From Planctomycetaceae bacterium (GTDB taxonomy: Bacteria; Planctomycetota; Planctomycetia; Pirellulales; Pirellulaceae), in NCBI GenBank assembly GCA_027487485.1, contig JAIYDN010000048.1, forward strand, positions 62,001 through 126,000: a stretch of 64,000 bases of DNA, given 5' to 3'. The notes under the pieces are model-generated. The model made no database searches. It was given only the letters and a program-made list of their open reading frames with translations, and was not told the DNA's origin. Below, piece by piece: positions 4,476 through 53,813 of the stretch; positions within the stretch are counted from its first letter, which is position 1; the number at the start of each line of letters is the position of its first letter. The translations under genes and the position numbers were made by a program.

Positions 4476-4623
4476 TTCACCCTCCCCAAACAGCGTTTGG
4501 GGAGGGTCAGCCCGCGATAGCGTGGCTGGGGAGGGGCGTCCGCATCGTTGACACACGCCTGCCCTCCCCGGCAATCTCGCTGAAGGCTCAATTGCCGATC
4601 CTCCCAGCTTCTGGGAGGGTAAG
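4476..4623 (+). repeat. Structured interspersed element, family A copy 1
   Basis: One of six copies in this window of a roughly 165-bp element. It opens with TTCACCCTCCCCAAAC, which folds back on GTTTGGGGAGGG. Next comes a hairpin between CAGCCCGC and GCGTGGCTG, then the conserved GGGGCGTCCGCATCG block, then a GGCAATC...GATTGCC-type hairpin. It closes with CTCCCAGC...GGGAGGGT. Outer ends are near-perfect inverted repeats of (C)TTCACCCTCCC. No coding capacity is evident. It lies between the tRNA and the 3' end of the sulfatase gene. Confidence 0.88.
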
Positions 4624-4680
4624 ATTGGATGTGGTAGCACCCCGTTTGGGGTGGGTAATGCCGTGCAAGAGTCGGTAAAG

Positions 4681-4820
4681 ACGCGCCCGACAAAAGTCGT
4701 TTTTCCTTTCTTTGAGCCTGAGGCGCTAGCCGATTATCACAATGAGCCTGAGACGCTAGCCGAGTTTTTTCGTATTGCAAAACTCGGCTAGCGTCTCAGG
4801 CTCACTTTTGTCGGGCGTGT
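4681..4820. repeat. Nested palindrome, GCTAGCC family (family B)
   Basis: The right arm at about 4776-4820 reads AAAACTCGGCTAGCGTCTC, then AGGCTCACTTTTGTCGGGCG. Its complement is present on the left in two blocks: GCCCGACAAAAGT at about 4685-4697 and GAGCCTGAGACGCTAGCCGAG at about 4744-4764. Between those blocks sits a second, slightly diverged GAGCCTGAGGCGCTAGCC unit at about 4714-4731, as if one copy was inserted into another. No coding potential. Related half-units occur near 12971, 34863 and 41136. Confidence 0.85.
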
Positions 4821-4848
4821 CGGTAAACTCAAATCCGTAGCCTCGTGT

Positions 4849-4895
4849 TAGCGCACCAAACCTATTGCGACGAAGAGCACGAGGCCCTACTTTGC
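4849..4895 (+). repeat. Short repeat, family D copy 1
   Basis: TAGCGCACCAAACCTATTGCG, followed by ACGAGGCCCT. The same 22 bases occur inverted at 43335-43356, with a diverged version at about 43410-43430. It runs up to the stop codon of the sulfatase fusion gene. Confidence 0.75.
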
Positions 4896-4896
4896 G

Positions 4897-7800
4897 TCAC
4901 TTACCTTTGGCTGATTCCATCGCTTTCATGACTCGCATCATGTTGCCCGAAAGGATCTTCTGAATGTCGGTTTCTGAGTAGCCCTTTCGAAGCAACAACT
5001 CCGTCAGGATGGGGTACTTGGAAACGTCTTCTAAGCCATCGGGCAACGTGGAAATGCCATCGAAATCGCTTCCAATTCCAACATGATCTACGCCTGCGAC
5101 CTTGGCGATGTGATCGATATGATCGACGACAATGTTCGCATCACCTGGAATGATCGGGTGAGTGGCTCGCCAAGTGGCCATCGCCTTTTTGAATTCATCG
5201 GATTCGTTATTCGGTCCTAGCTCTTTCTCTAACTTTCGACGAACGTCGAACATGTCCTTCATGTTCTTGGCGGATTCAGGTACCACAAATCCACTGAAAA
5301 AGTTAATCATCACGAGCCCACCGTTTGTCTTCAAGCGAAGCAGCACATCGTCCGGAACATTGCGAGGGTGATCCGCAACTGCTTTGGCGGAAGAGTGGGA
5401 AAAGATGACTGGCGCGGTGGTGATGTCCAATGCATCGTTCATGGTCGCAGGCGATACGTGCGATAGGTCCACCAGCATTCCAAGCCGATTCATCTCGCGA
5501 ACGACTTCTTCCCCAAATGGGGATAGGCCGTCGCTTTTCGCTTGATCCGTGGCCGCGTCGGCCCAATCCAGAGTGTCGCCATGCGTTAACGTCATGTATC
5601 GAACACCTTGGGAGTAAAGTTCTCGCAACTTGGCGATCGAGTTTTCAATCGAATGACCTCCTTCGACCCCCATCAGCGACGCAATTTTGCCTGCCTTGCG
5701 AATTCGCTCGACATCCGATGCGCTGGATGCAAATTCGAAAACGTTTGGGTGCTTCGCCAGGATCGCTCGCACGCAAGCGATCTGTTCTAGGGTCATTTGA
5801 AACGAGTTTTCGGTCTTAACGGTATTCGCGGGAACGAAGACAGACCAAAACTGTGCTCCTACATTTCCAGCTCGCAATCGAGGGATGTCCGTATGTAACG
5901 ATGGCTCATGGTTTAAGTTCGTTTTTTTGACGTTCAGATCGTTCCTCTCTCGCAAAGCCCAAGGCAAATCGTTATGCCCGTCCCATACGTAGCTTCGTTC
6001 GTGAATCTCTTTAGCTCGATCTGAAATAGCAATGACATCGTCCTGCGATGGTCGAAGGACGATTTGACGAATATCCATGATGGCAACGCCAGCTTTGGAC
6101 TTTGGGCGAACAGCCAACCGGTTGGTGCCTGCAGGAAGCCATGTCTTCCCTACATTCTCGATAATGATGTTTTGAAAATGCCCTGTGTCTCGAACCGTCC
6201 ATTCGTAAGAAGAATCTCCCACCTGAAGGGCTACCAAGGAACCACCGCCGGCACATCCGCAATGAACTTCAATCTCATAGCTACCATCCTTGGGAACTTT
6301 TAGTTCCCAGTCGACCCAGTCCTCCACCTCGGTCCAGTACCCAACCACGTTCTTGTTAGGTTGAGGTTCATAGATGATTTTTTTCCCATGAGTTACTGAA
6401 GCAGAAGGGGTTAGTCGGATTTCCCCATCCACCACTTTCAGGGCTGGCTTTTTGCCCGCAACAACTCGATTCATTTCTTTACGCCAGTTTTGCCATGCTT
6501 TTGCTACCTCGTTCGCACCGCGGCTGGAGTCAAGTCGGCTCGGGTCTTGGTCCAAGTAGATGGCTCGATGGAGTTCCGCTTTGGCCAATGGATTGGCTTT
6601 TCCGAACTGAGCTCCAACACTCTTTTGCCACCGATGCAGGGCATTTTTCATTTGGTCCGCTTGTTCAGCGAACTGAACGGCCACATTCGTTTTTTCCCCA
6701 ACATCTTTCTCCAGGTCAAACAATTCGATGCTTCCATCATCGAGCGTTTCCACAAGCTTCCATTTTCCTTGCAACATGGCCGCGGCGGGACGGCTGCCTT
6801 GGTTGGTGTAATGAGGAAAGTGCCAGTACATCGATCGGTCCATCGCCAGCGACCCACGCCCACCTTGCAACCAGCTGGATTTGAGACTGATACCGTCGAG
6901 TGGTCCAATGGCCTTCGCGGGCTCGACGCCAGCCACTTCCATCAAGGTTGGCATTAGATCTAAAAGCGATACAGGGGCATCGACGATCTGTTCTTTTTCA
7001 ATAGTTCCCATCCATCGCACGACCAAGGGGACTCGAATTCCACCTTCATACAAATACCCTTTGCCAGCACGGAACGGTTCGTTGTGAGTTGCAGGTTGTC
7101 CGTTACCTTCGGGTACGTGTAGGCCTCCGTTATCGCTGGTAAAGATCACGATTGTGGGGCGTGTTAAAGAGTCGATCGCGGTGATCAGCTTTCCGATCGA
7201 TTGATCGAGCGATTCGATGGTGGCTGCATACAACGGATTGAAGGCTGAAGCATTTTTTTGGATGAGTGCTTCTTGAGCAGCGAGATTGATGTGGGGCGAG
7301 TGTTGTGGGATGTAACAAAAGGTTGGCTTGTCGGTGCTTGATTTCAAAAATTGGATAGCTGCATCGACAATTGCAAATTCGTTCTTGCCCCCTTCTTTCT
7401 CGTCTAACGCTCCCTTCTCGGGGAACTCTTTTGCGACTTCGAAACCTTGGTACGTAGGTCCAAAGGCTCCTCCGCCAAGATGCCATTTTCCAAACAATCC
7501 CGTTCGGTAACCTGCGGCTTGCAGAGCTTCCGCCAAAGTGGTTTCCTCAAGCGGTAGATTCGGCTGAATTCTGGGACTGAGTAGTAACTGGGATTCGGCA
7601 TCGGGTCGGCCAGGAAGATAATTCGTCAGATGCAATCGAGCTGATGACTTGCCAGTCAATAATGCGGCTCGGGAAGCAGAACAAATGGACAAGCCGCAGT
7701 AGCTGTTGGTGTAGCGAATGCCTTGACTTGCAAGCAGATCAAGATTGGGTGTGTTGTGATCTTTGCGACCGTAGCAATGAAGATCCGAGATACCTAAATC

Positions 7801-7935
7801 ATCAGCAACCACCATAACAATGTTTGGTTGGTTATCGAGCTTGGTATCTTTGGCAGGCAAAGAAGAAGTCCAGCATGTCGCGCACAAGAATATAGCCAAA
7901 GGCAACAGGCCGTTGCGAAAAGGAAGTATGAGCAT
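4897..7935 (-). CDS. Secreted sulfatase / beta-sandwich / membrane dipeptidase (M19) fusion
   Basis: A 1012-residue protein starting at 7935, where GAGGA lies 6 nt upstream; an ATG 30 nt earlier is less well placed. Residues 1-28 form a signal peptide. Residues ~35-440 are a type I sulfatase: metal-binding DD at 45-46, formylglycine motif CSASR with Cys85 (Ala replaces the usual Pro), GKWHLG near 150-155 and TSDNG near 266-270. Residues ~500-630 resemble a carbohydrate-binding beta-sandwich. Residues ~635-1005 are a peptidase M19 (renal dipeptidase-like) domain with all expected zinc-site motifs: DGHNDLP, GVEGGHS, VDLSHVS and FSHSS. Each domain looks intact, so a two-activity exported enzyme is inferred. 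The sulfate ester and dipeptide or lactone substrates are unknown. The gene stands alone and is divergent from the LOR-domain gene. Confidence 0.9.
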
Positions 7936-8226
7936 GATGATCCTCGCGGTATGAATGGGCTGCAAACTCGATCAGCGTGACACGAAATGCTTTGGAAACG
8001 CTCATTTTAAACACTCCATAGCACCCCAGGGAATCATCGATATGTTAACCATGGTTGCGTTTCCAAGTAAGGTTCCAGCCAAGAATCGACCGGATGTTTC
8101 GGTTTTTCTCCGCCGCGTTTCGAAAGCATGTTGTTGGAATCCAGTTCGATTTTAAATCGAGTACAATCGCAGCAGTTGATTTTGATTCCCAACGCCACTT
8201 TTATAGCCAGTGTATCGGAGCTTGGT

Positions 8227-8811
8227 ATGAAGTATCCATTGGATCTGCGTTTCACGATTTTTTCTCTTTCGCAACAGATTACCGTGCGCGATGCGGATGG
8301 TAAGTCGATTTTATTTGTGAAACAAAAGATGTTTCGGTTCAAAGAAAAGATCGAGGTGTTTTCGGATGATTCGATGCAGAAGAAGCTGTTTGAAATCAAC
8401 GCCGATCGCATTATCGATTTCTCCGCCAACTACCACTTCACTTCAGCCGACGGTTCGGATTGGGGGGCCGTTCGGCGTCGCGGTATGCGATCGTTGTGGT
8501 CAGCTCATTATGAGATCATCGAAAACGGTGTCGTCGACATGAATCTGCAAGAAGAGGATCCTTGGAAAAAAATTCTGGAGTCTTTGTTGGGTGAGATTCC
8601 CTTTGTGGGATTCTTGGCAATCTATTTGCTTAACCCTACCTACCTGATCTCCATGGCAGACGGTACTCCCGCTCTGCGTGCGCTCAAGAAACCTTCGATC
8701 TTTGAACGCTATTTTGTGATCGAAAAGCTAGCGGAACTGGATGAGGATGACGAGCTCCGAGCATTGTTGTCCATGATCATGATGGTGCTTCTCGAAAAAT
8801 CACGTGGCTAA
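8227..8811 (+). CDS. LOR (LURP-one-related / tubby-like) domain protein
   Basis: A 194-residue cytosolic protein of the LURP-one-related family, which has a tubby-like beta-barrel around a hydrophobic helix. The start at 8227 is chosen because the family typically begins MKYPLDL and GGAGC lies just upstream; the open frame extends 33 codons further upstream without support. Visible signatures are QQITVRDADGKS, FVKQKMFRFKEKIEVFSD and the paired strands ending SMADGTPALRALKK. The bacterial function is not established; phospholipid or nucleotide binding has been suggested for relatives. It is followed 56 bp later by a TrkA-C membrane protein on the same strand, suggesting co-transcription. Confidence 0.85.
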   Translation: MKYPLDLRFTIFSLSQQITVRDADGKSILFVKQKMFRFKEKIEVFSDDSMQKKLFEINADRIIDFSANYHFTSADGSDWGAVRRRGMRSLWSAHYEIIENGVVDMNLQEEDPWKKILESLLGEIPFVGFLAIYLLNPTYLISMADGTPALRALKKPSIFERYFVIEKLAELDEDDELRALLSMIMMVLLEKSRG

Positions 8812-8867
8812 GCTCCAGATGCTGCGATCGTAAACCAATTCCTCGAATGACTGCAGGGTAAACAAGT

Positions 8868-9560
8868 ATGGCAGCGATCGTATCCCTCATCGTGATTGCG
8901 ATGGTCTCGCTTTTAGCCGTTCGTGCAGGCACGACGGCTCTGATGATGACGGGGCTAAGCTGGGATACTGCGAGTTTTCAGAGTTATTCCGCGTTCTTCG
9001 GTGTTGGATTTACGACTCGCGAAGCAGAAATGGTAGTGAATCATCCCGTGCGCCGTCGGATCATTCGCGACTTGATTCTTGCAGGAAACATCGGCGTTAC
9101 CTCTGCGGCGGCAACCTTGATCGCAACCTTGGTGCAGAACTCGAGTGGTTTCCGACCCTTGCTGATTGTTTGCGGGCTCGTTTGCGGGCTTTGTCTGCTT
9201 TTGTATCTAACCCGAGTCAGTTGGGTTCAGCGCGCTATCGATAAGATGATTCAGCGGACTCTTGAGCAGACTGGCTTGGTTCGTGTTATGGATTACGAAT
9301 TGTTGCTTCGAATCCAGCATGGCTATGTGATCTCGCAGGTCGAAATCATGGGCGACTCACCGATCGCGAATCAGTCGCTACGGCGTTCACGTCCTTGGGA
9401 TCAAGGAGTCATTGTTTTGTCCATCAAGTCAAGTGGCAAAGATCTTCCGGGCATCCCAAGCGCTGATACGACCTTGAGTATCGGCGATGTGGTGACGGTG
9501 TATGGTGAAGAGCATCATATACGGGCCCTTTTCGAAACAACCAAGCCAGCCCTTGATTGA
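8868..9560 (+). CDS. Membrane protein with C-terminal TrkA-C (RCK_C) domain
   Basis: A 230-residue protein with three probable membrane segments (about 3-28, 70-92 and 96-115) followed by a cytosolic TrkA-C domain from about 140 to 225 (SQVEIMGDSPIANQSLR, then LPGIPSADTTLSIGDVVTVYG). TrkA-C domains bind ligands, often cyclic dinucleotides or ions, and gate transporters or channels. No ion-channel selectivity filter is visible. A ligand-responsive membrane regulator or transporter subunit is an inference. It is probably co-transcribed with the preceding LOR-domain gene. Downstream it is convergent with the stress-protein gene, 71 bp away. Confidence 0.8.
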   Translation: MAAIVSLIVIAMVSLLAVRAGTTALMMTGLSWDTASFQSYSAFFGVGFTTREAEMVVNHPVRRRIIRDLILAGNIGVTSAAATLIATLVQNSSGFRPLLIVCGLVCGLCLLLYLTRVSWVQRAIDKMIQRTLEQTGLVRVMDYELLLRIQHGYVISQVEIMGDSPIANQSLRRSRPWDQGVIVLSIKSSGKDLPGIPSADTTLSIGDVVTVYGEEHHIRALFETTKPALD

Positions 9561-9631
9561 GCAAACGAGAAAGTGGACCTCGGTAAGTCCGAATACCTTG
9601 AGGCGTTTCTAGTAGACGAGAGATGGGATAT

Positions 9632-10495
9632 TCATCGCTTTCTTATCAGCAAAACTGAGCAAGGTGCATGGCGAAGCAAACCGCGAGAAACGCTCCCCAC
9701 GAAAAATCGGCTCATGGCAGAGCGTCCCTTGTCACCCAGAACAAGCATGTCCGCCTTTTGATCACCAAGATAATCCAAAATCGCATCCGCAACATGAGGC
9801 TGTTCCAAGACATGCTTATCGATGTGTTTGAAGCTAGGTGATAGTTCATTGGCTAATCGATTCAAAGCTGTAGTTGCTTCTTGAGAGAGTTGTGGATCGT
9901 ACTCGTAGCCTGGTTCCAGCAAGTAGGGATGTTCGATAACAGAAATCAATTGGACTTTTGTACTCTCAGAAAGATGCAATGCTTTGATTTGGGACGCTAG
10001 TTCGCGATCCGTCTCGGACCCATCGGACGCAATGATCAGGTTCAGCGGTTCACCAACTTGTTCTGTTTGTACGGCCTTCGGCCGAACCACAAGAACCGAG
10101 CAGGTTGCGTTCTGGGCTACTGATTCGCTAGTGCTTCCGATAAGCATACGTTCTAACAGTCCCCTACCTTGCGCGCCAACGACGATCAAGTCGACATTCG
10201 TTTCTTGAGCGTAATACGTGATCTCGTCAGCCGCGTTCCCGAGGCGTGCAACATGCAACCCCTCGATTCCAACTTCCTTTAAGATGGCCGAAGCTCGCTG
10301 AAAGGATTCATCTGCGTGGTTGCTCTCCTGGCGAATCGTTTCGTCAAAAACCGCCGCCGGAGTGACACCATAAACGTGATAATTCGAAACCGTCATTATC
10401 TCGTAGGATGTGCTGTGTTTTAAAGGAAAGCGTGAGAACCATCGTATGGTTTGTTCTGCGGATTTGGAACCATCAGTGGTTAGTAGCACTTTCAT
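9632..10495 (-). CDS. Tandem universal stress protein (two UspA domains)
   Basis: A 287-residue protein made of two UspA folds, residues 1-145 and about 155-287. The start at 10495 (MKVLLTTDG) matches the family; the frame extends 27 codons upstream but that sequence is unlike Usp proteins. Both domains carry the ATP-binding signature G-2x-G-9x-G(S): GAQGRGLLERMLIGS in the first and GDKGRSAMSRFFVGS in the second. Usp proteins bind ATP and help cells survive stress such as starvation, oxidants or low oxygen. The gene is divergent from a c'-like cytochrome gene across 490 bp, so a shared respiratory or stress context is possible but unproven. Confidence 0.93.
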   Translation of the reverse strand: MKVLLTTDGSKSAEQTIRWFSRFPLKHSTSYEIMTVSNYHVYGVTPAAVFDETIRQESNHADESFQRASAILKEVGIEGLHVARLGNAADEITYYAQETNVDLIVVGAQGRGLLERMLIGSTSESVAQNATCSVLVVRPKAVQTEQVGEPLNLIIASDGSETDRELASQIKALHLSESTKVQLISVIEHPYLLEPGYEYDPQLSQEATTALNRLANELSPSFKHIDKHVLEQPHVADAILDYLGDQKADMLVLGDKGRSAMSRFFVGSVSRGLLRHAPCSVLLIRKR

Positions 10496-10985
10496 AATTA
10501 TTCTCTTTTCGTGTTGGCGATGGCTGGAGAGTTTCGCTTTCATGAAGCAAAAAACATACCAACAGTCCGTTTTCACAGAGCATCCATGGGATTGGAACTC
10601 TAACCGCGAAACGACCAGCCTGTCCCGCTAACGCAACTAGCTCTCACTGGTACTCGTAATCAATGAAATGGTACTCGTACTAGAAACACGCTGGTCGAGT
10701 ACGCCTCACTTCGTTATTCGAAATTTCTCAAACGGTGTTCAACATTCAAAAAAGCTCCGGTCGTGTTTAGTCGCATGAGTCACTTTGGCACAGTTGTGCA
10801 GGTAGGTGTGTCTTTTGAGGTGTGCAATGGCGAATGGAGAAGTTGGGTTCTTAAAAGGTGAAGAAAGAATGATCACCGATTTCGTGCATGTTGTGTTCGA
10901 CCTGGACAAGTTTTGAAGAAAGGCTCAAAAAGGATCCGATAACAGAATTGAGTGAATGCAGTTTTAGAGTGGAACGGAGACCATC
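10496..10985. other. 490-bp divergent intergenic region
   Basis: Lies between the start of the stress-protein gene and the start of the first cytochrome gene, so it should hold two divergent promoters. The 10-bp word GGTACTCGTA occurs twice about 25 bp apart near 10640-10680, a possible operator. A sigma-54-like sequence near 10786 has the wrong spacing. No gene is supported. Confidence 0.5.
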
Positions 10986-12096: not shown

Positions 12097-12111
12097 GAAG
12101 GGCCCGTAAAC

Positions 12112-12405: not shown

Positions 12406-12418
12406 CCGCGTGTGGATT

Positions 12419-12960: not shown

Positions 12961-12970
12961 AATATCAAAA

Positions 12971-32567: not shown

Positions 32568-32723
32568 GTACTACAAAGAGTTCAGGAAAAACAAACAACG
32601 CAAACTGGCAACAACCCTTATAGGCCCTTAACCAACATTCAGTATTTTTCATCCTAATCGTACTTGTCGTTGCAATCCATACGTCCAGAACAATGTACTA
32701 CTTAGCGCACCACCGCATGCGTT

Positions 32724-32887
32724 CTTACCCTCCCAGCCGCTTCGGCCGGGAGGGTCGGCAATCGAGCCCTCAGCGAGATTGACGTGGAGGGCAGGACGCG
32801 GTCGATTGACTTAGCGATGCGGACGCCCCCTCCCCAGCCACGCTATCGCGGGCTGATCCTCCCCAAACGCAGTTTGGGGAGGGTGAA
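32724..32887 (-). repeat. Structured interspersed element, family A copy 2
   Basis: Inverted relative to copy 1. Begins CTTACCCTCCCAGCCGCTTC and ends CAGTTTGGGGAGGGTGAA. It keeps the GGACGCCCCCTCCCCAGCC block and the ATCGAGCCCTCAGCGAGAT hairpin core. It sits in the 373-bp gap between the hybrid kinase stop and the Hpt start, so it may separate the transcripts of the two. Confidence 0.88.
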
Positions 32888-32939
32888 ATGGGTGGGTGAT
32901 CAGCGAGAGTCTCTCGACGGGATTCTTTTTACTTCGAAT

Positions 32940-36160: not shown

Positions 36161-36217
36161 AAAAGGACGAAAAGGGATAGCCGCTTTTCTGAGCCTTCTA
36201 GTTAATCGCCACCCAAC

Positions 36218-36384
36218 TTCACCCTCCCCAAACCCTGTTTGGGGAGGGTCAGCCCGCGACAGCGAGGCTGGGGAGGGGCGTCTGCATCGCTGACAGTTCG
36301 ATCAGCCGCGACGAACCCTCCCCGGCAGTCTCGCTAAAAGCTCGATTGCCGACCCTCCCAGCCTAATCGGCCGGGAGGGTGAAG
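36218..36384 (+). repeat. Structured interspersed element, family A copy 3
   Basis: A full-length copy: TTCACCCTCCCCAAACCCTG at the left and CGGGAGGGTGAAG at the right, with the GGGGCGTCTGCATCG block inside. It is followed 86 bp later by a truncated copy in the same orientation. Confidence 0.9.
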
Positions 36385-36470
36385 ACTTAATGCTAAAGCA
36401 AAACAACTTCATGCTAATAAGAAACAGCATCTGCAACGCCATCAACCCTGAGCCTGTGGTACCACCCAAC

Positions 36471-36573
36471 TTCACCCTCCCCAAACCCTGTTTGGGGAGG
36501 GTCAGCCCGCGACAGCGAGGCTGGGGAGGGGCGTCCGCATCGTTGACAGTTCGATCAACCGCGATCAGTCCTC
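36471..36573 (+). repeat. Structured interspersed element, family A copy 4 (3' truncated)
   Basis: Identical to copy 3 for about the first 75 bases (TTCACCCTCCCCAAACCCTG onward). It then ends abruptly, directly before the stop codon of the phosphodiesterase gene, and lacks the right-hand hairpins. Confidence 0.88.
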
Positions 36574-38370
36574 CTACTGCTCCTCATACTTCGGCGGCTT
36601 TCCAAGCAAGCCAGCAATTTCTGTCAGTAATCGATCGGTGCTGCTCATGTTGGAGCGTTGCTTCAGCACATCTTTTGCAACCTCCGGGCGATTGGTGATC
36701 ACACCATCGACCCCGCGATTCATGAGCGACGACATGCTTACCGGGTCGTCTACTGTCCAAACATAAATCTCCTTGCCTGCTTGGTGCATCTTGTTGATCA
36801 AGCTTCGCGTTGCAAACCGAGCGTTGACGGCCAAAAAGTCGGCCTCAATCTTTTGAATGTTCCCCACGGAGACTGAGAGAAGCACACCGCATTTCCAACT
36901 CGGGCGCAGACGTTTCATTTTCCGTACTCCGTCTGGTTTCAGCGACATCACCATGATTTCATTCGACATCCCGTGTTTTTCCACAATGTCCACCACCCTT
37001 TGTTCCAGTTGTTGATCGTGGCCGTAGTACTTCAGCTCGATCAGAACCCCGGTCTTGCCTTGGCACAGCTGCAGTACTTCCGAAAGAGTTGGAACACGTT
37101 CGTTTTGGAACGGGGGACCAAAGGAACCGCCGATATCAATACTCTGAAGATCAGATAATCGAGCGTCCCAAACTTTGGTTTTGTTGCGTGCCAACTTCAT
37201 GAAGTCGCTGTCGTGGATGACAACCACCTCGCCATCGGCAGTCTCCTGCACGTCAATCTCGACCCAGTCGCTGCCGGTCTCCATGGCGACGCGAACGGCA
37301 GCCAAACTGTTTTCGGGTGCTGCTTTAGACGCCCCGCGATGCGCCATGATCATCACGTCCTCTTTCCATTGCAAGCGGCTAATTGCGCTGGCACCAATCC
37401 AAGCAGCCACAAGTAATCCGATCAGGCAAATCGCTATCGCCCTGTAACGATTTAAAGTCGGCTTCGGAAAGTGGAGACGATGGTTCAGTAGCGGAGCACT
37501 CGCAAGCGATTTTTTGGCGTCTGGATTCAGTTTCTGATACGCATGAAACAACAGCAGCGCAAAGCCTAGCGATCCAATCAAATTGAGAATCAAGCTGACG
37601 ACGGAAAGCGCAACAAGCATCAGTCCAACTCGCCCTGCCAATAAGGCTAGCGATCCAAGAGTGCTCGGGATAAGCCAACGCCCTGCCATTCCCAGGAAGA
37701 AGGTTGCAAGGGCGTTGGCAATGATACCAACCGTCAACCAAGCGACCATCCATCGCAAGACAAGAAGACGCTTCCCTGCAATCATCTGTCGACTCTTCGG
37801 CAAAGCCACCGAAGTCGGGACGCGATCAAACAACACCAAGGGCAGTGCGAGAAACCAACCCGAATACAGTCGCAGCAAAATGGTCAGCAGTCCCGTTGCA
37901 AGAATAACCCCTAAGACTACAGCAATGCGAAAAATCAATGGCCGCTCGTCGAGATAGTAATTGATGTCGTACTCGCTAAGAGCAAAAAGGTAGACCGAAC
38001 CGGCCGTCAACAGAAACGGCGCAGCGACCAACAAGGATGCCGCAGTCAGTCGGCCCGCCACGCGAACGACGGGCACCGTATAGTTCAACGCATATTGCAG
38101 CGCACCCAACGCACTCAGTTGCTTTCCCTGGGAGTGTGCCGCAAGGATCGCTAGTAAAGAAGCTTGCTCCAAAGCAAGAATGCCTAACCACACGGCGCCA
38201 ATCACAATCGCACAAAGCCAACCAAGTGGACCGATGAAGAACCAAGCAATATCCACGTCAGATAAAACCGGATTGCCACGCACCATCAATAACCCCTGCA
38301 GCAAGATCGTCAGCAAAGGTGTTAAAACAGCCATCGTGAGAAGCTTGTATGCCAGATCGGTAACGATCAT
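36574..38370 (-). CDS. Membrane-anchored glycerophosphodiester phosphodiesterase
   Basis: 598 residues. The first ~330 hold about seven or eight membrane helices of the type found fused to GDPD domains. A GDPD TIM-barrel follows (about 345-580): MAHRGASKAAPENSLAA, then DWVEIDVQETADGEVVVIHD with the catalytic His, Glu and Asp pattern, IELKYY, and VWTVDDPVSMSSLMNRGVDGVITNRP. It should release glycerol 3-phosphate from glycerophosphodiesters. Whether the domain faces the cytosol or periplasm is unclear. The 3' end abuts repeat copy 4. It is followed upstream by ogt, 116 bp from its start. Confidence 0.92.
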   Translation of the reverse strand: MIVTDLAYKLLTMAVLTPLLTILLQGLLMVRGNPVLSDVDIAWFFIGPLGWLCAIVIGAVWLGILALEQASLLAILAAHSQGKQLSALGALQYALNYTVPVVRVAGRLTAASLLVAAPFLLTAGSVYLFALSEYDINYYLDERPLIFRIAVVLGVILATGLLTILLRLYSGWFLALPLVLFDRVPTSVALPKSRQMIAGKRLLVLRWMVAWLTVGIIANALATFFLGMAGRWLIPSTLGSLALLAGRVGLMLVALSVVSLILNLIGSLGFALLLFHAYQKLNPDAKKSLASAPLLNHRLHFPKPTLNRYRAIAICLIGLLVAAWIGASAISRLQWKEDVMIMAHRGASKAAPENSLAAVRVAMETGSDWVEIDVQETADGEVVVIHDSDFMKLARNKTKVWDARLSDLQSIDIGGSFGPPFQNERVPTLSEVLQLCQGKTGVLIELKYYGHDQQLEQRVVDIVEKHGMSNEIMVMSLKPDGVRKMKRLRPSWKCGVLLSVSVGNIQKIEADFLAVNARFATRSLINKMHQAGKEIYVWTVDDPVSMSSLMNRGVDGVITNRPEVAKDVLKQRSNMSSTDRLLTEIAGLLGKPPKYEEQ

Positions 38371-42977: not shown

Positions 42978-43160
42978 CTTCGTAGTGGCCGAGGCAAGGA
43001 GGCCCTGTCTTAGGTAGTGGCCGAGGCCACGAGGCCTTGTCTTCGTGGTGGCCGAGGCAACGATTCCTTGTCTTCGTAGTGGACGAGGCAACGAGTCCTT
43101 GTCTTCGTAGTGGATGAGGCAACGAGTCCTTGTCTTCGTAGTGGCCGAGGCTACGAGGCC
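42978..43160 (+). repeat. Tandem array of 31-32-bp units, family C (six units)
   Basis: Six head-to-tail units of about CGTAGTGGCCGAGGCAACGA followed by GGCCTTGTCTT, starting at 42981, 43013, 43044, 43075, 43106 and 43137. Units differ by a few bases. There are no unique spacers, so this is not CRISPR. The same unit forms a second array at 52967-53108. The array begins directly after the pepD stop. Confidence 0.92.
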
Positions 43161-43165
43161 CGGCT

Positions 43166-43280
<115 letters not shown>

Positions 43281-43334
43281 AAGCAGCGAGTCCCCGCTCA
43301 CACAAAAAGCGAAACAGGGCCTTGAGCCCAGATT

Positions 43335-43430
43335 TCGCAATAGGTTTGGTGCGCTAAACCCAGCGAGCACAAGCTTGCGATCGCGGTCCAGGGCCTCGAG
43401 CCCGACGACCGCAACAGGTTTGGCGTGCTA
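43335..43430 (-). repeat. Short repeats, family D copies 2 and 3
   Basis: CGCAATAGGTTTGGTGCGCTA at 43336-43356 is the exact complement of 4849-4869. CGCAACAGGTTTGGCGTGCTA at 43410-43430 is a diverged second copy, about 75 bp later. Each is preceded by GGCC(T)TGAGCCC-type sequence. Confidence 0.8.
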
Positions 43431-43693
43431 CCGGAACTGGGCCATCTCTCGCTTCCGTCGAGTTTATCTCGGCGGAGCGTACAACTGAAAGCTACCAACG
43501 GTAGAATTTGAAGTTGAATGGGCTTCGGACGAGGCGGCGCGATCTGTGTCGCCCCATTCGGGGCTTTCGAGGATCAAGGGGTTCGGGACCGGTGGCCGCG
43601 GGCCACCGGCAAAGGATGTATCGGCTCATTCGGGCCTGGAATACAAATCGATTGCGGCAAGCATGTCTTGTCAGGATCCCTCGATATCGAGCC

Positions 43694-43820
43694 TGTGCCA
43701 GCGTGGCTGGAGGGGCTTCTTTGTTGCTGGAGGGAGACCGACCGCGACGAACCCTCCCCGGCAATCTTACTAATTACTCGATTGCCGACCCTCCCAGCCG
43801 AAGCGGTTGGGAGGGTGAAG
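43694..43820 (+). repeat. Structured interspersed element, family A copy 5 (5' truncated and diverged)
   Basis: Lacks the left TTCACCCTCCCC hairpin. It keeps CCAGCGTGGCTGGAGGGGC, GACGAACCCTCCCCGGCAAT, TCGATTGCCGACCCTCCCAG and the right end GGGAGGGTGAAG. A 60-bp G/C-rich stretch before it (about 43590-43640) resembles family E (GGTGGCCGCGGGCCACC). Confidence 0.85.
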
Positions 43821-47729: not shown

Positions 47730-47753
47730 AATCCGTTTCTGTGAATCTCACGC

Positions 47754-47774
47754 GATCGCCCATGTTCCGGGCGA
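47754..47774. terminator. Short hairpin between convergent genes
   Basis: ATCGCCC pairs with GGGCGAT across 7 nt, between the GH10-like and HNH genes. No T-run follows, so termination is only suggested. A 16-bp tandem duplication (CTGTTAGCTTGCAACG twice, 47791-47822) lies just beyond and covers the HNH stop codon. Confidence 0.45.
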
Positions 47775-47809
47775 TTCGCTTGATTGTCCCCTGTTAGCTT
47801 GCAACGCTG

Positions 47810-48421
47810 TTAGCTTGCAACGTTCGTCAGAAACGTTTTCCAGGAATGATACCTTGGATCTTGCAACGTGACCGCGATACCTGGATTTGCATGAGGCCGG
47901 ACAGGGGTGGTCAATAGCTTCATGGAGGCCTGAACCGGGGTGCGTCCACCCTTTTTGCCATTGCAACCCATGCAAGAACAAACCACATTTTCCCAGGTCG
48001 TCTTTCCACCTTGAGAACGCGGGACAACGTGGTCCAGACTTAACTGGCTCATCGGTCTTGTTTGACCGCAGTATTGGCATCGATAGCCATCGCGCGCGAA
48101 CAAGGTTTTGCGATTGAATCGAACGGTTGATTTAGGAATTCGATCGTAAAGCACTAAGCGAACAATGCGAGGGACTTGCAGTTCTCTTGTCGGGGTTCGA
48201 AGGTAATCTTCGTCGTTCTGCTTTTCCATCGCATGCAGTTCCGACAATTCGCACCAACTTTCAAAGTCGTAATTGGCGTACTGATCTTCTTCGATCACAA
48301 TCACTTCGGCACACCCACGATATAGCAGCGTCATCGCACGTCGAACGTCGACCACGCGAACGGCCATGTAGAAACGATTCAGCACCAATACACTACAATC
48401 CAATGCGGAGCTTTCGCTCAT
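47810..48421 (-). CDS. HNH endonuclease family protein
   Basis: 203 residues from the ATG at 48421 (MSESSALDCSVLVLNRFYMAV), which has GGGAGGAG 5-6 nt upstream. The HNH core lies at about 110-160: LFARDGYRCQYCG, LSLDHVVPRSQGGKTTWENVV, CSCMGCNGKKG. The two CxxC pairs should bind a structural zinc. Stand-alone HNH proteins of this kind are widespread in planctomycetes and cyanobacteria. Their role (repair, restriction or other) is not known. No methyltransferase or phage gene is nearby. It is divergent from the DUF456 gene. Confidence 0.9.
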   Translation of the reverse strand: MSESSALDCSVLVLNRFYMAVRVVDVRRAMTLLYRGCAEVIVIEEDQYANYDFESWCELSELHAMEKQNDEDYLRTPTRELQVPRIVRLVLYDRIPKSTVRFNRKTLFARDGYRCQYCGQTRPMSQLSLDHVVPRSQGGKTTWENVVCSCMGCNGKKGGRTPVQASMKLLTTPVRPHANPGIAVTLQDPRYHSWKTFLTNVAS

Positions 48422-48497
48422 GCTGACTCCTCCCGGTGGGTGATTGAACAAAATCCAGAACACTGAAGGCATACCGTGCCCATCAGCATAACCCATT

Positions 48498-49088
48498 TTG
48501 GGCGCGGTCGCCAACAGTCCGAAGAGATCTTCACAATTTCGCGAGTTACAAAACTTGAACTACCTTATTGCTAGCGTCGTTACCTTGGTTGCCCCCATTT
48601 TGTGGGTGTGCACTTTGCTGGGGTTGCCCGGTAACTGGGGGTTGCTGTTGCTTGGCGCAGCGGTCGCCTACTTCAACACGGTTGAGACGCATCAGGACGT
48701 TGACTTCCCAGCAATGATCACGCTGTTGGTGCTTGCAATCGCGGGTGAGATCATCGAATTTTTGGCTGGGGCAGCAGGCGTCAACCAGCTTGGTGGTTCA
48801 CGTCGAGGGACCGTTTTAGCGGTCGTGGGTTCGCTCGTGGGGGCGATCGTTGGGATGTTTGTAGGGATCCCCGTGCCGTTTATTGGAAGCTTGATCGCGG
48901 CGGTATTTTTTGGAGGGCTTGGAGCTTTTGGCGGAGCCATTGCGGGCGAGCGATGGGCTGGAAAAGATTGGGATCTCAGCATCCGAATCGGGTGGGGAGC
49001 CCTATGGGGCAAGCTGCTGGGCACCTTGCTCAAAACCATTTGCGGAACGGTGATGATGGTTTTGCTGATCTACTCGGTTTGGTTTTAG
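48498..49088 (+). CDS. DUF456 family membrane protein
   Basis: Up to 196 residues. The start is uncertain: the open frame begins at a TTG at 48498, and a second TTG at about 48555 (LNYLIASVV) would give a shorter protein starting at the first helix. Five or six hydrophobic segments rich in Gly cover most of the length, e.g. VAPILWVCTLLGLPGNWGLLLLGAAVAYF and SRRGTVLAVVGSLVGAIVGMFVGIPVPFIGSLIAAVFFGGLGAF. The glycine-zipper-like repeats are typical of DUF456. Function unknown. Confidence 0.85.
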   Translation: MGAVANSPKRSSQFRELQNLNYLIASVVTLVAPILWVCTLLGLPGNWGLLLLGAAVAYFNTVETHQDVDFPAMITLLVLAIAGEIIEFLAGAAGVNQLGGSRRGTVLAVVGSLVGAIVGMFVGIPVPFIGSLIAAVFFGGLGAFGGAIAGERWAGKDWDLSIRIGWGALWGKLLGTLLKTICGTVMMVLLIYSVWF

Positions 49089-49104
49089 CCAAGGCGGTTT
49101 GGCC

Positions 49105-50493
49105 TTAGCCAAGACTGACGCGTCCAGTTCCGTCGCCAAATGTTACGCCTTCGATCCCGACATGTTCTAACATGGTGGAGAACAGATTGTTCAAAGGGGT
49201 GTTGATCGGGAATTCGAGCAGCCGCCCCGTTTCAACTCGATTGCCACCTTTGCCCGCGAGAATGATGGGTAGATCATGATGGTCATGTCGATTTCCGTCG
49301 GAGATACAACCACCGTAGACGATCAGCGACTGATCGAGCAAGGATCCGTTGGCATCCTTTGTTTCCTTCATCTTTTTGAGGAAGTAGCAAAATTGCTCGG
49401 AGTAGTACTTGTCGATTTTCGCGATCTTGTCCACGTTCTCTTGCTTGTTCTCGTGGTGCGATAGCTGATGGTGGCCGTCTTTTACTTCAATCATTGGGAA
49501 GGCTCGGTTGCTTCCTTCGTTGGCGAGCATGAACGTAGCAAGCCGTGTGGTGTCCGTTTGGAATGCCAGAACCATCATGTCGTACATCAGTCGAATATGT
49601 TCTGTCGGGTCATTTGGTTTTTCCGAAGGCTCTTTTGTACCTTCTGGCAGAGTAATCTCCTTGGTGAAGCGATTGATGCGTTGTTCGACTTCCCGAACGC
49701 TATTGAAGTACTCTTCTAATTTTTGTTTGTCTTCCGAGCCGGCAATGCGTTCCAAGTGGGATCGCTGGTCGGCAACAAAATCAAGGATATGCGACTGCAT
49801 TTGGCGCAATCGCGAATCCTGGCCGCCGGTGCCGAAAAGTCGCTGAAACGCTCGAAGCGGGTTCACTTCTTTGGCAGTAGGAAGGGAGTCAGATCTCCAA
49901 GAGATATTATTCGAATAGGCGCACGCGTAGCCCGAATCGCAGGAGCCTGCATCGCGACCTTCTTCCGTGCCTAGTTCGATGGATGCCAATCGCGTCGATC
50001 GGCCATACGAATCGGCAGCAATCTGATCGACGCTTCGGCCAGCTTTAATTTTCGAACCCGCCGTCTTGTAAGGATGTGCACCCGTCAGAAACGCTGCCGC
50101 CGAACGAGCGTGATCTCCAGGTCCGTCCCCAAGCGACTGGGCATTCACTTGCGCTAAGCCACGCAGGACATTGAAGTCGGATTTGCAGTCGGCCAGTGGT
50201 TCCAAGCTGGGCGAAAGTTGCCAGTCCAAGCCTTTGCCTTTGGGTAGCCAACGTTCTGCATTCGTTCCATTGGGAAAAAACACCCAAGCAAGTCGAACGG
50301 GCGACGCTGCGGCCCCTTGTTCAGCGGCTCGCGCCAAGGGCGTTTGCATTAGATTTAAGCTGGGCAATGCAAGCGAAACTCCTAGGCCTCGCAGCAAAGT
50401 GCGGCGATTGATCCTGGAGCAAGCCACGGATCGGTCCAAAATATGGGAAGCGTCAGCCACGCTGGAATGAACGTTTGGATTTTCAGTTTGCAT
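49105..50493 (-). CDS. DUF1552 exported protein
   Basis: 462 residues. The N-terminal RINRRTLLRGLGVSLALPSL looks like a twin-arginine signal. The rest is a DUF1552 domain (VFFPNGTNAERW, DHARSAAAFLTGAHPYKT, YGGCISDGNRHDHHDLPIILAGKGG), which has a remote alkaline phosphatase/sulfatase-like fold. Found almost only in planctomycetes and related phyla, next to the DUF1592 protein; function unknown. Its ATG lies 11 nt inside the upstream gene, with AAAGGAAAT as ribosome site, so the two are translationally coupled and probably act together in the periplasm. Confidence 0.95.
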   Translation of the reverse strand: MQTENPNVHSSVADASHILDRSVACSRINRRTLLRGLGVSLALPSLNLMQTPLARAAEQGAAASPVRLAWVFFPNGTNAERWLPKGKGLDWQLSPSLEPLADCKSDFNVLRGLAQVNAQSLGDGPGDHARSAAAFLTGAHPYKTAGSKIKAGRSVDQIAADSYGRSTRLASIELGTEEGRDAGSCDSGYACAYSNNISWRSDSLPTAKEVNPLRAFQRLFGTGGQDSRLRQMQSHILDFVADQRSHLERIAGSEDKQKLEEYFNSVREVEQRINRFTKEITLPEGTKEPSEKPNDPTEHIRLMYDMMVLAFQTDTTRLATFMLANEGSNRAFPMIEVKDGHHQLSHHENKQENVDKIAKIDKYYSEQFCYFLKKMKETKDANGSLLDQSLIVYGGCISDGNRHDHHDLPIILAGKGGNRVETGRLLEFPINTPLNNLFSTMLEHVGIEGVTFGDGTGRVSLG

Positions 50494-52879
50494 GGGTGGG
50501 ATTTCCTTTAGCGAGGAAGGCGGGGGACTCGTGAAACGCGTTGCTTAAGACAATAGCCTTAACCATCGCCCGAAACGAGCCTGAGTTTTCTGTAGTGTAC
50601 TGTAAAACCAAGTCAACGTCACACTTATCCTGACGTTGTAAACCTCGTCCCAAAGCATACGTTAGCATGCGTTGAGCAACGTTTTTTTCAACCTGGGGTT
50701 GGGCGGACGACATGAACGCGATCAATTCGGCGGGGCTTTGAAAAACTCGCCCGTCTGCCAATTCCCCTTTGGAATCGATCGCGATATCACCGTCCTTATC
50801 ACGCCATCGTCCAATTGCGTCGAAATTCTCAAGCCCAAGTCCAATCGGGTCCATCAATTTGTGGCAACCTGCGCAGCTTGGGTTGCTTCGGTGGATTTCC
50901 AGTCGTTCCCGCAGCGAAGCGTTCGGCTTGTGTTCGGCCGATTCGAGGGATGGGACGTTGGGTGGAGCAGACGGTGGCGGATCCCCTAGAACATTTTCCA
51001 AGATCCATTTCCCTCTTTTGACGGGGGACGTTCGAGTTGGATTGGAAGTGAGTGCTAGAACCGAAGCATGCGTCAGAAGGCCTCGTCGGTTCAAGCCCTG
51101 TTCAGAACGTACCCATTTATCCTCGTTCTCATACAATCCTTGGCGACGTTCGTAGCCCCCTTTTCGGTTTGGGTTCCGGCGATACATCTTGCTGGGATCC
51201 TTCCCTTCGAAAGGGATCCCATAGAACTCCGCTAGTCTTGGATTGATGAATGTGTAGTTCGCGCTGACAATCTCGTCTAGCGATCCCTGTCTCAAAAGAT
51301 GACCGCAAAACATTTCTGTCTCTTTGACCAGTGCATTTCGCAATCGGTCGTTCCAGCCCACATATTTTTCGCGGTCGATATCGATCTTGGCTAGGTTTCT
51401 CAATCCGAGCCATTGACCAAAGAAGCCACTTACCATCGCGTCCGACTTAGGGCTCTCCAGCATGCGATCGACTTGCTGCTTGAGAATTTCAGGATCGCGC
51501 AAGGAACCGGTTCGAGCCAATTCAAAGAGCGTTTCGTCCGGCATCGAGGACCACAGAAAGTACGAAAGTCGGACTGCTAGGCTGTAATCATCGATTCGCG
51601 AGCTCGTGTCCAACGATTCGTTCCGAAACAAGAAGTTGGGTGAAACCAAGACCGCTTGCAAGCCAAATCGAAGGGACTCTTCGTAGGTGAAGCCCGCTGC
51701 GGCAGCTTTCTCGCATACGGCCACCACGGCGTTCACTTCTTCCGCTTGGATTGGACGACGGTATGCACGCGGCAGCAGTTTTGCGAAAACACGTCGGGAC
51801 GCTTCCGGCAGGCCAATAGGCTCGGAATCGGGAGTGTCGCGTTGGTCGGGTCGAGCGATAACCAATAAGTCATGGTGCCGGGGAAAAGAAGGCTTGCCTT
51901 TAGATGGCCCGGAAAGCCGAACGGTGTCAATGAACAAACGACTATTGGGATCATTGCGATCGTCTGGGTTGTTATCCTGCAGGTATTGCACAGTCACTTC
52001 ATGCTCGCCTGCGGTCAATGTTACATCGTGTTTGTAAGTTTCTTCTTTGGACTGGACGTCGTGCTGGGCAACTGGTTTGCCATCGACGGCGATGGCCACT
52101 TGGCAGTTAAAGTTTGGCTTTTCGCCAAAACGCATTCGGACATTGATTTGATAGTCTCCCTCCGCTGTATATATCGGAACGGCTTGAGATCCCAGATGAA
52201 ACAGAGCCTCACCTTCGAATGTTTGCTTGCGAAACTGTTCGCGATCGGTCTCGATGGTGTTGTTCGCAACGAACTCGGCGGCTTGCAGGTATTTCTCCAG
52301 CACGATGGGCGGCAAGGTCAGCACTTCACCTTGATTGTCGAATCCGTTCCCCACGTCATCGGAAACAAAGCCTATTTTACGAGACGCTTTCAAGTCGACC
52401 AAAAGCAGATCGCGAACCGTGTTGTCGTATTCGATCTGATTTAGTCTTCGCAAAGTGACTGCCGGCGGAGGTTCCGCGCAGGAGCAATCCACTTCATGCA
52501 ACGCCTGTTCGATCCAAGTGGCCAGTTGCACGCGTTGCTCGGGGCTGATGCGGCTTTCTGCCGGAGGCGGCATGGCTTCCGCCCGAATGACTCCTCGAAC
52601 TTGTTCCCATGTGCTGGTGTGCAACCGAATTTTTGCAAGATCTTGGTAGTCGTCCAAGTCAACGCCACCTTCGTTGGCGGAATCCATGTGGCAGCTTCCA
52701 CAGTGCTCCTTCAAGAGTGGCTGGATGGCATTCGTCCAGCGTTGCGATAGGTCTTGATCCAGCGAGTTTTCTTTTTCTTGAGCTACAAGGTCGATCGGCG
52801 TCCAAAGAGCCATTGAAACAGAAAGCGCGAAAGCCCCCCAAGCAAGGGGTGGGTGATTGAAGCAACCAGTTCTAAACAT
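50483..52879 (-). CDS. DUF1587/1595/1592/1588/1585 cytochrome-like exported protein
   Basis: 798 residues from the ATG at 52879; the frame is open 21 codons upstream. A signal peptide is followed by a c-type heme site CGSCH (about 58-62) in the N-terminal domain, then DUF1587 (LRRLNQIEYDNTVRDLL), a beta-sandwich domain (YQINVRMRFGEKPN), DUF1595 and DUF1592 (LSYFLWSSMPDETLFELA), DUF1588 (RGLLTHASVLALTSNPTRTSPVKRG, with a second CAGCH and KLMDPIGLGLENFDAIGRWR) and DUF1585 (RMLTYALGRGL). Such multi-domain proteins are a planctomycete hallmark. Electron transfer or polysaccharide handling is often proposed but unproven. The DUF1552 gene overlaps its end. Confidence 0.96.
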   Translation of the reverse strand: MFRTGCFNHPPLAWGAFALSVSMALWTPIDLVAQEKENSLDQDLSQRWTNAIQPLLKEHCGSCHMDSANEGGVDLDDYQDLAKIRLHTSTWEQVRGVIRAEAMPPPAESRISPEQRVQLATWIEQALHEVDCSCAEPPPAVTLRRLNQIEYDNTVRDLLLVDLKASRKIGFVSDDVGNGFDNQGEVLTLPPIVLEKYLQAAEFVANNTIETDREQFRKQTFEGEALFHLGSQAVPIYTAEGDYQINVRMRFGEKPNFNCQVAIAVDGKPVAQHDVQSKEETYKHDVTLTAGEHEVTVQYLQDNNPDDRNDPNSRLFIDTVRLSGPSKGKPSFPRHHDLLVIARPDQRDTPDSEPIGLPEASRRVFAKLLPRAYRRPIQAEEVNAVVAVCEKAAAAGFTYEESLRFGLQAVLVSPNFLFRNESLDTSSRIDDYSLAVRLSYFLWSSMPDETLFELARTGSLRDPEILKQQVDRMLESPKSDAMVSGFFGQWLGLRNLAKIDIDREKYVGWNDRLRNALVKETEMFCGHLLRQGSLDEIVSANYTFINPRLAEFYGIPFEGKDPSKMYRRNPNRKGGYERRQGLYENEDKWVRSEQGLNRRGLLTHASVLALTSNPTRTSPVKRGKWILENVLGDPPPSAPPNVPSLESAEHKPNASLRERLEIHRSNPSCAGCHKLMDPIGLGLENFDAIGRWRDKDGDIAIDSKGELADGRVFQSPAELIAFMSSAQPQVEKNVAQRMLTYALGRGLQRQDKCDVDLVLQYTTENSGSFRAMVKAIVLSNAFHESPAFLAKGNPTHAN

Positions 52880-52966
52880 CAAACCAAAGCTCTTATTTCG
52901 TGAGGTGATCCAAGACGACCTTCTATTGTAACAACAAAACAAACCGAATTCTGAAAAGATTCATCA

Positions 52967-53108
52967 CGTAGCGGACGAAGCAACGAGGCTCAAACTTTCG
53001 TAGTGGACGAGGCGACGAGGCCCAAAAGTTCGTAGTGGACGAGGCGACGAGGCCCAAAAGTTCGTAGTGGACGAGGCAACGAGGCCCAGAGGTCCGTATT
53101 GGACGGAG
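52967..53108 (+). repeat. Tandem array of 31-32-bp units, family C (five units)
   Basis: Five units of about CGTAGTGGACGAGGCGACGA followed by GGCCCAAAAGTT, starting at 52967, 52999, 53031, 53063 and 53095. Units two to four are nearly identical and the outer ones are diverged. Same family as 42978-43160. It lies between the DUF1592 gene start and the VOC gene and so overlaps any promoters there. Confidence 0.92.
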
Positions 53109-53180
53109 GCGAAGAACTTCGTTACGTTGACTGTCCGACGAGATGCAATTTCCTTACACCAACCCATTTTTGGAGGTCCG

Positions 53181-53567
53181 ATGAAACGAGTCACTGGCAT
53201 AGGCGGCATCTTCTTTAAAGCAAAGGATGCCCCAGCATTGCAAGCTTGGTACAAGCGGCATTTAGGTATCGACGTTCAGGCCTGGGGTGGTACAGCCTTC
53301 ACTTGGACCGATGGCGATGGGAAACCCATGGCGGGAACTACCATCTGGTCGATTGGTCCCTCGGAAAGCGATCACTTTGCCCCCAGTGAAGCGCCTTTCA
53401 TGATCAACTATCGGGTTGAAGATCTTCATTCGCTTATCAAAGTTCTGCGAGAGGAAGGTTGCAACTTGCTGGAGAAGATCGATGAATCCGAGTACGGGAA
53501 GTTTGCCTGGGTCATCGATCCGGAAGGAAACAAGGTAGAACTTTGGCAGCCCCCTGCTGGGCAATAA
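53181..53567 (+). CDS. VOC-superfamily (glyoxalase-like) protein
   Basis: 128 residues from the ATG at 53181, which has the strong site TGGAGGT 5 nt upstream; the frame extends 38 codons earlier into the repeat array. Two beta-alpha-beta-beta-beta modules: VTGIGGIFFKAKDAPALQAWYKRHLGI, then FMINYRVEDLHSLIKVLREEGC ending AWVIDPEGNKVELWQP, the classic VOC C-terminal strand with its metal-ligand Glu. Metal-dependent, small-molecule chemistry is likely but the substrate is unknown. It stands alone, convergent with the phosphohexomutase gene. Confidence 0.93.
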   Translation: MKRVTGIGGIFFKAKDAPALQAWYKRHLGIDVQAWGGTAFTWTDGDGKPMAGTTIWSIGPSESDHFAPSEAPFMINYRVEDLHSLIKVLREEGCNLLEKIDESEYGKFAWVIDPEGNKVELWQPPAGQ

Positions 53568-53645
53568 TGAAGCGAGTTGGGAAGAGTCTTTAAGTGAAAA
53601 TGAAAGTTAGTCATGACACTTCTCGTTGATCATTACCACATCTAG

Positions 53646-53813
53646 CTTCACCCTCCCAGCCGCTTCGGCAGGGAGGGTCGACGATCGAGCCTTCAGCGAG
53701 ATTGCCGGGGAGGGTAGGTCGCGGTCTGTTGACCTGTAGACGATGCGGACGCCCCTCCCCAGCCACGCTATCGCGGGCTGCCCCTCCCCAAACGGGGTTT
53801 GGGGAGGGTGAAG
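53646..53813 (-). repeat. Structured interspersed element, family A copy 6
   Basis: A full copy with the clearest ends: CTTCACCCTCCCAGCC on the left and GTTTGGGGAGGGTGAAG on the right, which are 12-bp inverted repeats. It lies between the convergent VOC and phosphohexomutase genes. Confidence 0.92.

What the first reader, a model, noticed from the sequence alone, without database searches (positions are those of the whole stretch)
4476..53813. Six copies of an unnamed ~165-bp structured element with inverted ends (family A)
Copies at 4476-4623, 32724-32887, 36218-36384, 36471-36573, 43694-43820 and 53646-53813 share the same order of hairpins: TTCACCCTCCCCAAAC/GTTTGGGGAGGG, CAGCCCGC/GCGTGGCTG, then the GGCAATC/GATTGCC and CCCTCCCAGC/GGGAGGG end. 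The outer 11-12 bases are inverted repeats. Three copies are complete, one is 3' truncated, one 5' truncated and one has a shortened middle. Both orientations occur. All are between genes, mostly at gene 3' ends. Variation falls in loops and in paired positions, suggesting structure is kept. I cannot assign it to a known REP, MITE or RNA family. The inverted ends favour a non-autonomous mobile element; the repeated GGGGAGGG words could also form G-quadruplexes.
Basis: partly seen in the sequence, partly recalled or inferred. Interest (0 to 1): 0.72.

Follow-up and report, generated by a model that had tools for sequence, protein, structure and literature searches.

The report
Planctomycete mobile element with folded core
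The six copies belong to a family of short, gene-less mobile DNA elements of planctomycete bacteria whose middle folds into five touching hairpins, a fold kept across several genera while the outer ends that mark the element's borders differ.

Summary
Confirmed and extended. All six window copies are real; the host genome holds 27 places.

Mobility is supported. A close relative lacks the 53646 unit, flanks meeting near the outer repeats. Five relatives lack the 36217/36471 pair. A related core in Rhodopirellula solitaria sits in six 300-bp units with 25-bp terminal repeats; four of five inspected have 7-9-bp target duplications.

The core fold is conserved across genera: 21 of 48 pairs change on both sides, shuffled mean 7.9. 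Outer repeats differ between genomes, and once within one genome. Three complete genomes of another genus carry dozens of copies each, many in 181-184-bp tandem arrays; at one shared site the copy number is 7, 3, 1.

Best reading: a MITE-like family with a conserved multi-arm core. Transposase and core role are unproven. No Rfam match; no description found in my literature searches.

The parts
4453..4474 (-). outer (shell) inverted repeat, H5 side, of the 4475 copy
   Evidence: holds exact GGTGGCGATCAGCGAGAAGT
4475..4624 (-). core copy with shortened H1 loop and middle
   Evidence: R1 157.1 bits
32707..32722 (+). partial outer repeat, H1 side (by eye)
32723..32888 (+). complete core copy
   Evidence: R1 171.1 bits; decayed ortholog in G020
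32889..32909 (+). outer repeat, H5 side
   Evidence: 4 mismatches to the pattern
36194..36216 (-). outer repeat, H5 side
36217..36384 (-). complete core copy, second of a tandem pair
   Evidence: R1 182.1 bits; absent from five relatives
36453..36469 (-). partial outer repeat, H5 side (by eye)
36470..36573 (-). core copy lacking H1-H2, abutting the stop codon at 36574
   Evidence: R1 101.3 bits for 36470-36633; absent from five relatives
43694..43820 (-). core copy with H5 lost
   Evidence: R1 70.7 bits for 43679-43820
53618..53645 (+). outer repeat, H1 side
   Evidence: missing in G020
53646..53813 (+). complete core copy: H1 5-34, H2 35-63, H3 64-70 with 111-117, H4 118-138, H5 139-168 (columns of alignment A1)
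   Evidence: R1 183 bits
53833..53859 (+). outer repeat, H5 side (after a 19-bp extra stretch 53814-53832)
   Evidence: 4 mismatches to the pattern

Best explanation
A family of non-autonomous, MITE-like mobile elements of Pirellulaceae. A unit is an outer pair of imperfect inverted repeats around a 168-bp core that folds into five helices with no linkers. Shown: the units are dispersed, are missing from the same sites in relatives, and in R. solitaria are bounded by terminal repeats and target duplications; the core's pairing is conserved between genera while the outer repeats are not. Inferred: a DDE-type transposase acting in trans on the outer repeats moves the unit. The core is kept because the element's multiplication or tolerance depends on its fold as single-stranded DNA or as RNA. 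CCCTCCC words repeated in the arms allow slippage that deletes arms (short copies), and unequal exchange makes tandem arrays.
For: 27 places in the host genome, 18 of them 140 bp or longer with the 168-bp query; only 6 of 27 genus genomes (host included) with a DNA match. Outer 20-mer: 10 host-genome matches at up to 3 mismatches, 8 beside the element, reversed control 0. G020 lacks the 53646 unit, flanks meeting near the outer repeats. G020, G018, G014, G006 and G016 lack the 36217/36471 pair after the conserved stop codon. R. solitaria: six 300-bp units, 25-bp terminal repeats, 7-9-bp duplications in 4 of the 5 units whose flanks were printed. G093: one unit with a 22-bp perfect terminal repeat and a 4-bp CGTA duplication; another with ends that by eye resemble the window-type outer repeat. 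Covariation: 21 of 48 pairs with two-sided change (shuffled mean 7.9, slid versions 6-12), 94.5% of cells paired. Decay of the orthologous 32724 copy in G020: 20 of 30 comparable pairs kept, 18 pairs lost to a deletion.
Against: No target duplication evident around host-genome copies (0 of the 4 loci with both outer repeats recognised, by eye). No autonomous partner with the window's outer repeat at up to 3 mismatches. In R. solitaria the same terminal repeat lies beside a single ORF without any family match; that it is a transposase is my impression, not shown. The other genus (g7) has arrays without evident outer repeats (by eye). The 36217/36471 site in the window also lost native sequence, so it is not a clean insertion. 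At array site E no clean empty site was seen. The junction at 53646 was placed by eye in poorly conserved flank. 45 of the 55 rows behind the covariation count come from g7, and the alignment was fitted to the model.
Confidence: 0.68

Rival explanations
1. Host-used 3'-end element: a folded RNA or DNA module downstream of genes that stabilises transcripts, blocks read-through or binds a protein, as proposed for REP/BIME sequences.
For: 37 classified sites: 24 codirectional, 10 convergent, 3 divergent, against 118, 25 and 49 of 192 intergenic gaps of 150 bp or more in the same loci. 19 of 24 codirectional sites are nearer the gene 3' end (one-sided binomial 0.003, or 0.021 for 15 of 20 after collapsing orthologous sites by hand). 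Pairing conserved between genera. In g7, G-U outnumber A-C departures on the H1-first strand 42 to 11.
Against: Both orientations relative to codirectional genes: 15 same, 9 opposite. In the host genus G-U to A-C is 10 to 19. Orthologous copy decayed in G020, and other copies are absent from relatives. The g7 contrast of C>U to G>A between paired and unpaired columns is not significant (Fisher p 0.12). No T-run directly follows H5 in the flanks printed.
Confidence: 0.2
2. REPIN-type element moved by a RAYT tyrosine transposase through single-stranded DNA.
For: Conserved inverted ends with a variable spacer, compensatory changes and tandem clusters are described for REPINs (PMC3116915, passages). 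Y1_Tnp genes exist: 11 matches in the host, 17 in three g7 genomes.
Against: No R1 match within about 1.5 kb of 8 of 11 host Y1_Tnp loci (the other 3 not examined) or of 17 of 17 g7 loci. Target duplications in R. solitaria and G093 do not fit RAYT chemistry as I recall it.
Confidence: 0.07
3. A plain satellite: tandem repeats spreading by slippage and recombination only, without transposition.
For: Arrays of period 181-184 and copy number 7, 3 and 1 at one shared site; local pairs in the host genome.
Against: Copies dispersed on 16 contigs of the host, outer repeats, target duplications in relatives, sites without the element.
Confidence: 0.05

Closest known systems
MITEs of prokaryotes, e.g. 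QMITE2 of Coxiella (PMC10969869; passages and figure legend seen)
   Same: Short, gene-less, terminal inverted repeats (QMITE2 23-29 bp; here 22-25 bp in two relatives), direct repeats (QMITE2 7-9 bp; here 7-9 bp in R. solitaria), stable predicted fold
   Different: GC-rich (62-68% in the 18 long host copies, 51% in the window) where that review calls MITEs typically AT-rich; core conserved between genera with covariation while the terminal repeats change; tandem arrays in another genus
REPINs / REP doublets (PMC3116915; abstract and passages seen)
   Same: Inverted ends around a variable spacer, compensatory changes, tandem clusters, extragenic
   Different: Five helices in 168 bp instead of a REP pair; not found beside the Y1_Tnp genes examined; target duplications in relatives
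GTAG/CGTC-tagged REPs, reported also in Planctomycetes (PMC3733652; abstract and passages seen)
   Same: Extragenic palindromes, phylum overlap
   Different: Those are 20-40 bp palindromes; the held text has no mention of Rhodopirellula, Pirellula or Blastopirellula
Prokaryote satellites (PMC6749651; passages seen), whose table lists Rhodopirellula baltica with what I read as 29 satellites
   Same: Tandem arrays in this family of bacteria
   Different: Whether any of those is this element was not tested

Membership tests
MITE | terminal inverted repeats | tested here: met
   window-type outer repeat imperfect, recognised on both sides at 4 of 18 host loci looked at; 25 bp in R. solitaria, 22 bp perfect in one G093 unit
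MITE | target-site duplication | tested here: inconclusive
   4 of 5 inspected R. solitaria units and 1 G093 unit yes; none evident at the 4 host loci with both ends
MITE | short, gene-less, dispersed | tested here: met
   about 220-300 bp units; 27 places on 16 host contigs
MITE | related autonomous element with the same ends | tested here: inconclusive
   none for the window repeat; in R. solitaria one terminal repeat beside an unassigned 371-aa ORF, other end not found
MITE | insertion polymorphism | tested here: met
REPIN | association with a RAYT gene | tested here: not met
   0 of 8 host loci (of 11) and 0 of 17 g7 loci
REPIN | a pair of inverted short REP hairpins | tested here: not met
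   five helices
Named structured RNA (Rfam 15) | match to a covariance model | tested here: not met
   window: only a tRNA at gathering threshold; none at E up to 1 in L009, L120, L071, L150
Functional RNA | transcription of the folded strand | not testable with these tools
   no RNA data

The most novel reading that the evidence does not exclude
The folded core, not the terminal repeats, is the persistent lineage: a five-helix DNA (or RNA) module that has been carried inside different mobile shells, two of them within one genome, and that in another genus multiplies as shell-less tandem arrays. Its fold would then have a job of its own, such as recruiting replication or recombination enzymes or a host protein.
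Probability: 0.25. Interest if true: 0.7.

Novelty: new variant of a known kind. Interest (0 to 1): 0.5.

Why it matters
It gives planctomycete genomes an abundant repeat family, undescribed as far as my searches show, with a covariation-supported fold. Complete genomes and close relatives make gain, loss and array growth directly measurable. It separates two questions usually merged for small bacterial repeats: what moves the unit (outer repeats) and what keeps the inside folded (core).

Tried and rejected
Rfam: no match. RAYT neighbourhoods: no element in those examined. Autonomous partner of the window repeat: only two extra 3-mismatch matches, C109:311877 and C113:60612, whose 350 printed bases show no element. 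Target duplications in the host genome: none evident (by eye, no statistic). Locus E in G032 versus G127: no clean empty site. Candidate transposase in R. solitaria: no Pfam, NCBIfam or PDB match, no match in G000, G018 or G093, a second 20-residue match in G115, no relative in viral contigs. First MAFFT alignments of the sites without the element were misplaced and replaced by pairwise ones. Strand preference (G-U versus A-C) points opposite ways in two genera; left open. Literature: (listings only) and passages of four papers gave no description of this element; subscription papers are mostly not held.

Limits of counts: gene context used 25 of 27 host copies (two near contig ends left out), the g7 stretches fetched, and a home-made gene caller. 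Searches used 91 distinct rows of 105 after antisense and identical rows were dropped. A2 and A3 were fitted to R1, so pair counts lean towards its structure; 45 of A3's 55 rows are from g7. R1's E-values are rough by the tool's own statement. Because the core is palindromic, match totals count some copies on both strands: one search's totals (137, 114, 117) are not copy numbers; its 150 best rows, all above 78 bits, I counted by hand as 64, 42 and 44 places. Family and phylum searches used stricter filters, so absences are soft. In one search two of the six printed loci (L125, L140) showed the same unit, so five R. solitaria units were inspected.
Full report
Observation. A 168-bp query from 53646-53813 finds 27 distinct places on 16 contigs of the 7.49-Mb host assembly, 18 of them 140 bp or longer; five further rows are antisense palindrome matches. 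The 18 long copies align with 84% mean column identity. Their consensus fold is five helices with no linkers: H1 ACCCTCCC/GGGAGGGT, H2 CGGCAATC/GATTGCCG around GAGCC..AGCGAG, H3 GGGGAGGG/CCCTCCCC enclosing the variable middle, H4 CAGCC.CGC/GCGGGCTG, and H5 ACCCTCCCCAAAC/GTTTGGGGAGGGT. Within the host genome only 1 of 48 predicted pairs shows a two-sided change.

True borders. The flanks outside the core are themselves repeated. GGTGGCGATCAGCGAGAAGT has 10 matches at up to three mismatches in the host genome, 8 of them beside the element, with none for the reversed control. An inverted, imperfect version lies on the other side of some copies, e.g. window 53618-53645 facing 53833-53859; both sides were recognised at 4 of 18 loci scanned. 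A complete unit is thus about 220-240 bp. Some shorter copies join what looks like the left outer repeat straight to H4-H5, as expected from slippage between CCCTCCC words (by eye, inference).

Gain and loss. G020, a 77%-complete relative with aligned stretches of 80-93% identity to the window, has about 27 bp between aligned blocks where the window has about 283 bp at the 53646 site. By eye the flanks meet at GCGTGTCAGGTACCGACG, so the missing part is shell, core and shell; the flank next to the junction is poorly conserved. No outgroup was aligned there, so gain in the host and loss in G020 are not separated. At 36217/36471, G020, G018, G014, G006 and G016 keep the gene's stop codon; none has the element in the 320 bases printed after it, and R1 finds no match beyond it in the stretches fetched, except in G020 the orthologous 32724 copy further on. 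G020, G018 and G006 share downstream sequence that the window lacks, so the host lineage most likely gained the element here, with loss of native sequence (by eye). At 32724 the G020 copy scores 31.1 bits against 171.1, keeps 20 of 30 comparable pairs, and lost 18 pairs to a deletion. Paired columns changed at 16 of 70 and unpaired at 7 of 48. That copy is not being maintained.

Relatives elsewhere. The covariance model R1 matches 26 of 119 sampled genomes of the family, host included, at E up to 0.001; several of the weaker matches share the architecture only loosely. At E up to 1e-6 it matches 2 of 294 drawn across the phylum: the host and one of another family of the same class. Exact pattern matches name Rhodopirellula solitaria CA85, R. 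maiorica SM1, an uncultured Pirellula MAG and the NIOZ-UU7 MAG; G115, G018 and G093 are equated with three of these by matching contig lengths.

R. solitaria carries six 300-bp units with 25-bp terminal repeats. Of the five whose flanks I printed, four have direct duplications of 7-9 bp (GGCTACC, CGCAAGC, GCTTGCC, GGCTTATGG) and one (contig C9) has none. Near-identical ends, at up to 3 mismatches, also occur on other variants of the core and beside a 371-aa ORF of no known family. In G093 one unit has a 22-bp perfect terminal repeat with a CGTA duplication, and a second carries, by eye, ends like the window-type outer repeat around the same kind of core.

Arrays. Three complete genomes of genus g7 give 137, 114 and 117 R1 matches from 150 scored candidates each. 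These totals include antisense doubles of the palindromic core. The 150 rows listed, all above 78 bits, are by my hand count 64, 42 and 44 places. Many lie in tandem arrays of period 181-184. At one shared site 50-51 bp after a stop codon, G127 has 7 copies, G097 3 and G032 1. No outer repeats are evident around the arrays whose flanks I printed (by eye).

Fold conservation. On 53 distinct sequences from seven genera (45 of the 55 rows from g7), 94.5% of cells pair, 21 of 48 pairs have a two-sided change (shuffled mean 7.9, 0 of 500 shuffles as high) and slid structures give 6-12. H4 is the clearest, e.g. G-C 39 to A-U 13 at one pair. The alignment was fitted to the model, so the figures lean towards it. 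Hairpin-templated correction of palindromes could also create paired changes without selection (established idea, recalled). G-U versus A-C departures do not agree between genera: 10 to 19 in the host genus, 42 to 11 in g7.

Context. Of 37 classified sites, 24 lie between codirectional genes, 10 convergent and 3 divergent, against 118, 25 and 49 of 192 gaps of at least 150 bp in the same loci; 19 of the 24 are nearer the 3' end. Orientation is mixed (15 same, 9 opposite). This fits tolerated landing sites as well as a 3'-end role.

Conclusion. The best reading is a MITE-like family, confidence about 0.68, whose core fold is conserved between genera for a reason not shown. The bold reading, that the core is the persistent unit and the shells are exchangeable, rests and stays open.

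Noticed in passing
window 43081-43509: A different dispersed repeat: stretches of about 190-420 bp match other host contigs (C17, C59, C110, C73, C75, C85) at 77-88% identity.
   Followed up: no
window about 4637-4655: A CACCCC AAAC GGGGTG palindrome beside the 4475 copy where the outer repeat is cut short; looks like another small repeat.
   Followed up: no
window 53646-53813 and 32723-32888 versus L016: The H1 loop CGAAGCG occurs inverted (CGCTTCG) in some copies, as if hairpin loops flip (by eye).
   Followed up: partly
H1 of g7 copies (e.g. L104, L120): A G-A mismatch stands in place of the U-A pair in the middle of H1 in 52 of 91 rows.
   Followed up: no
L127, L129, L130 (R. solitaria): The target sites look palindromic (GGG..CCC), as if the units insert into another hairpin repeat (by eye).
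   Followed up: no
L132 (R. solitaria C9:839-1138): Unit without matching flanks, its two sides resembling those of other units: possible recombination between copies.
   Followed up: no
L136 (R. solitaria C4): A stretch of about 900 bp between similar ends (1 and 4 mismatches) contains two copies of a different repeat (GTAGGGCCGGTTCCCACCGGCC...).
   Followed up: no
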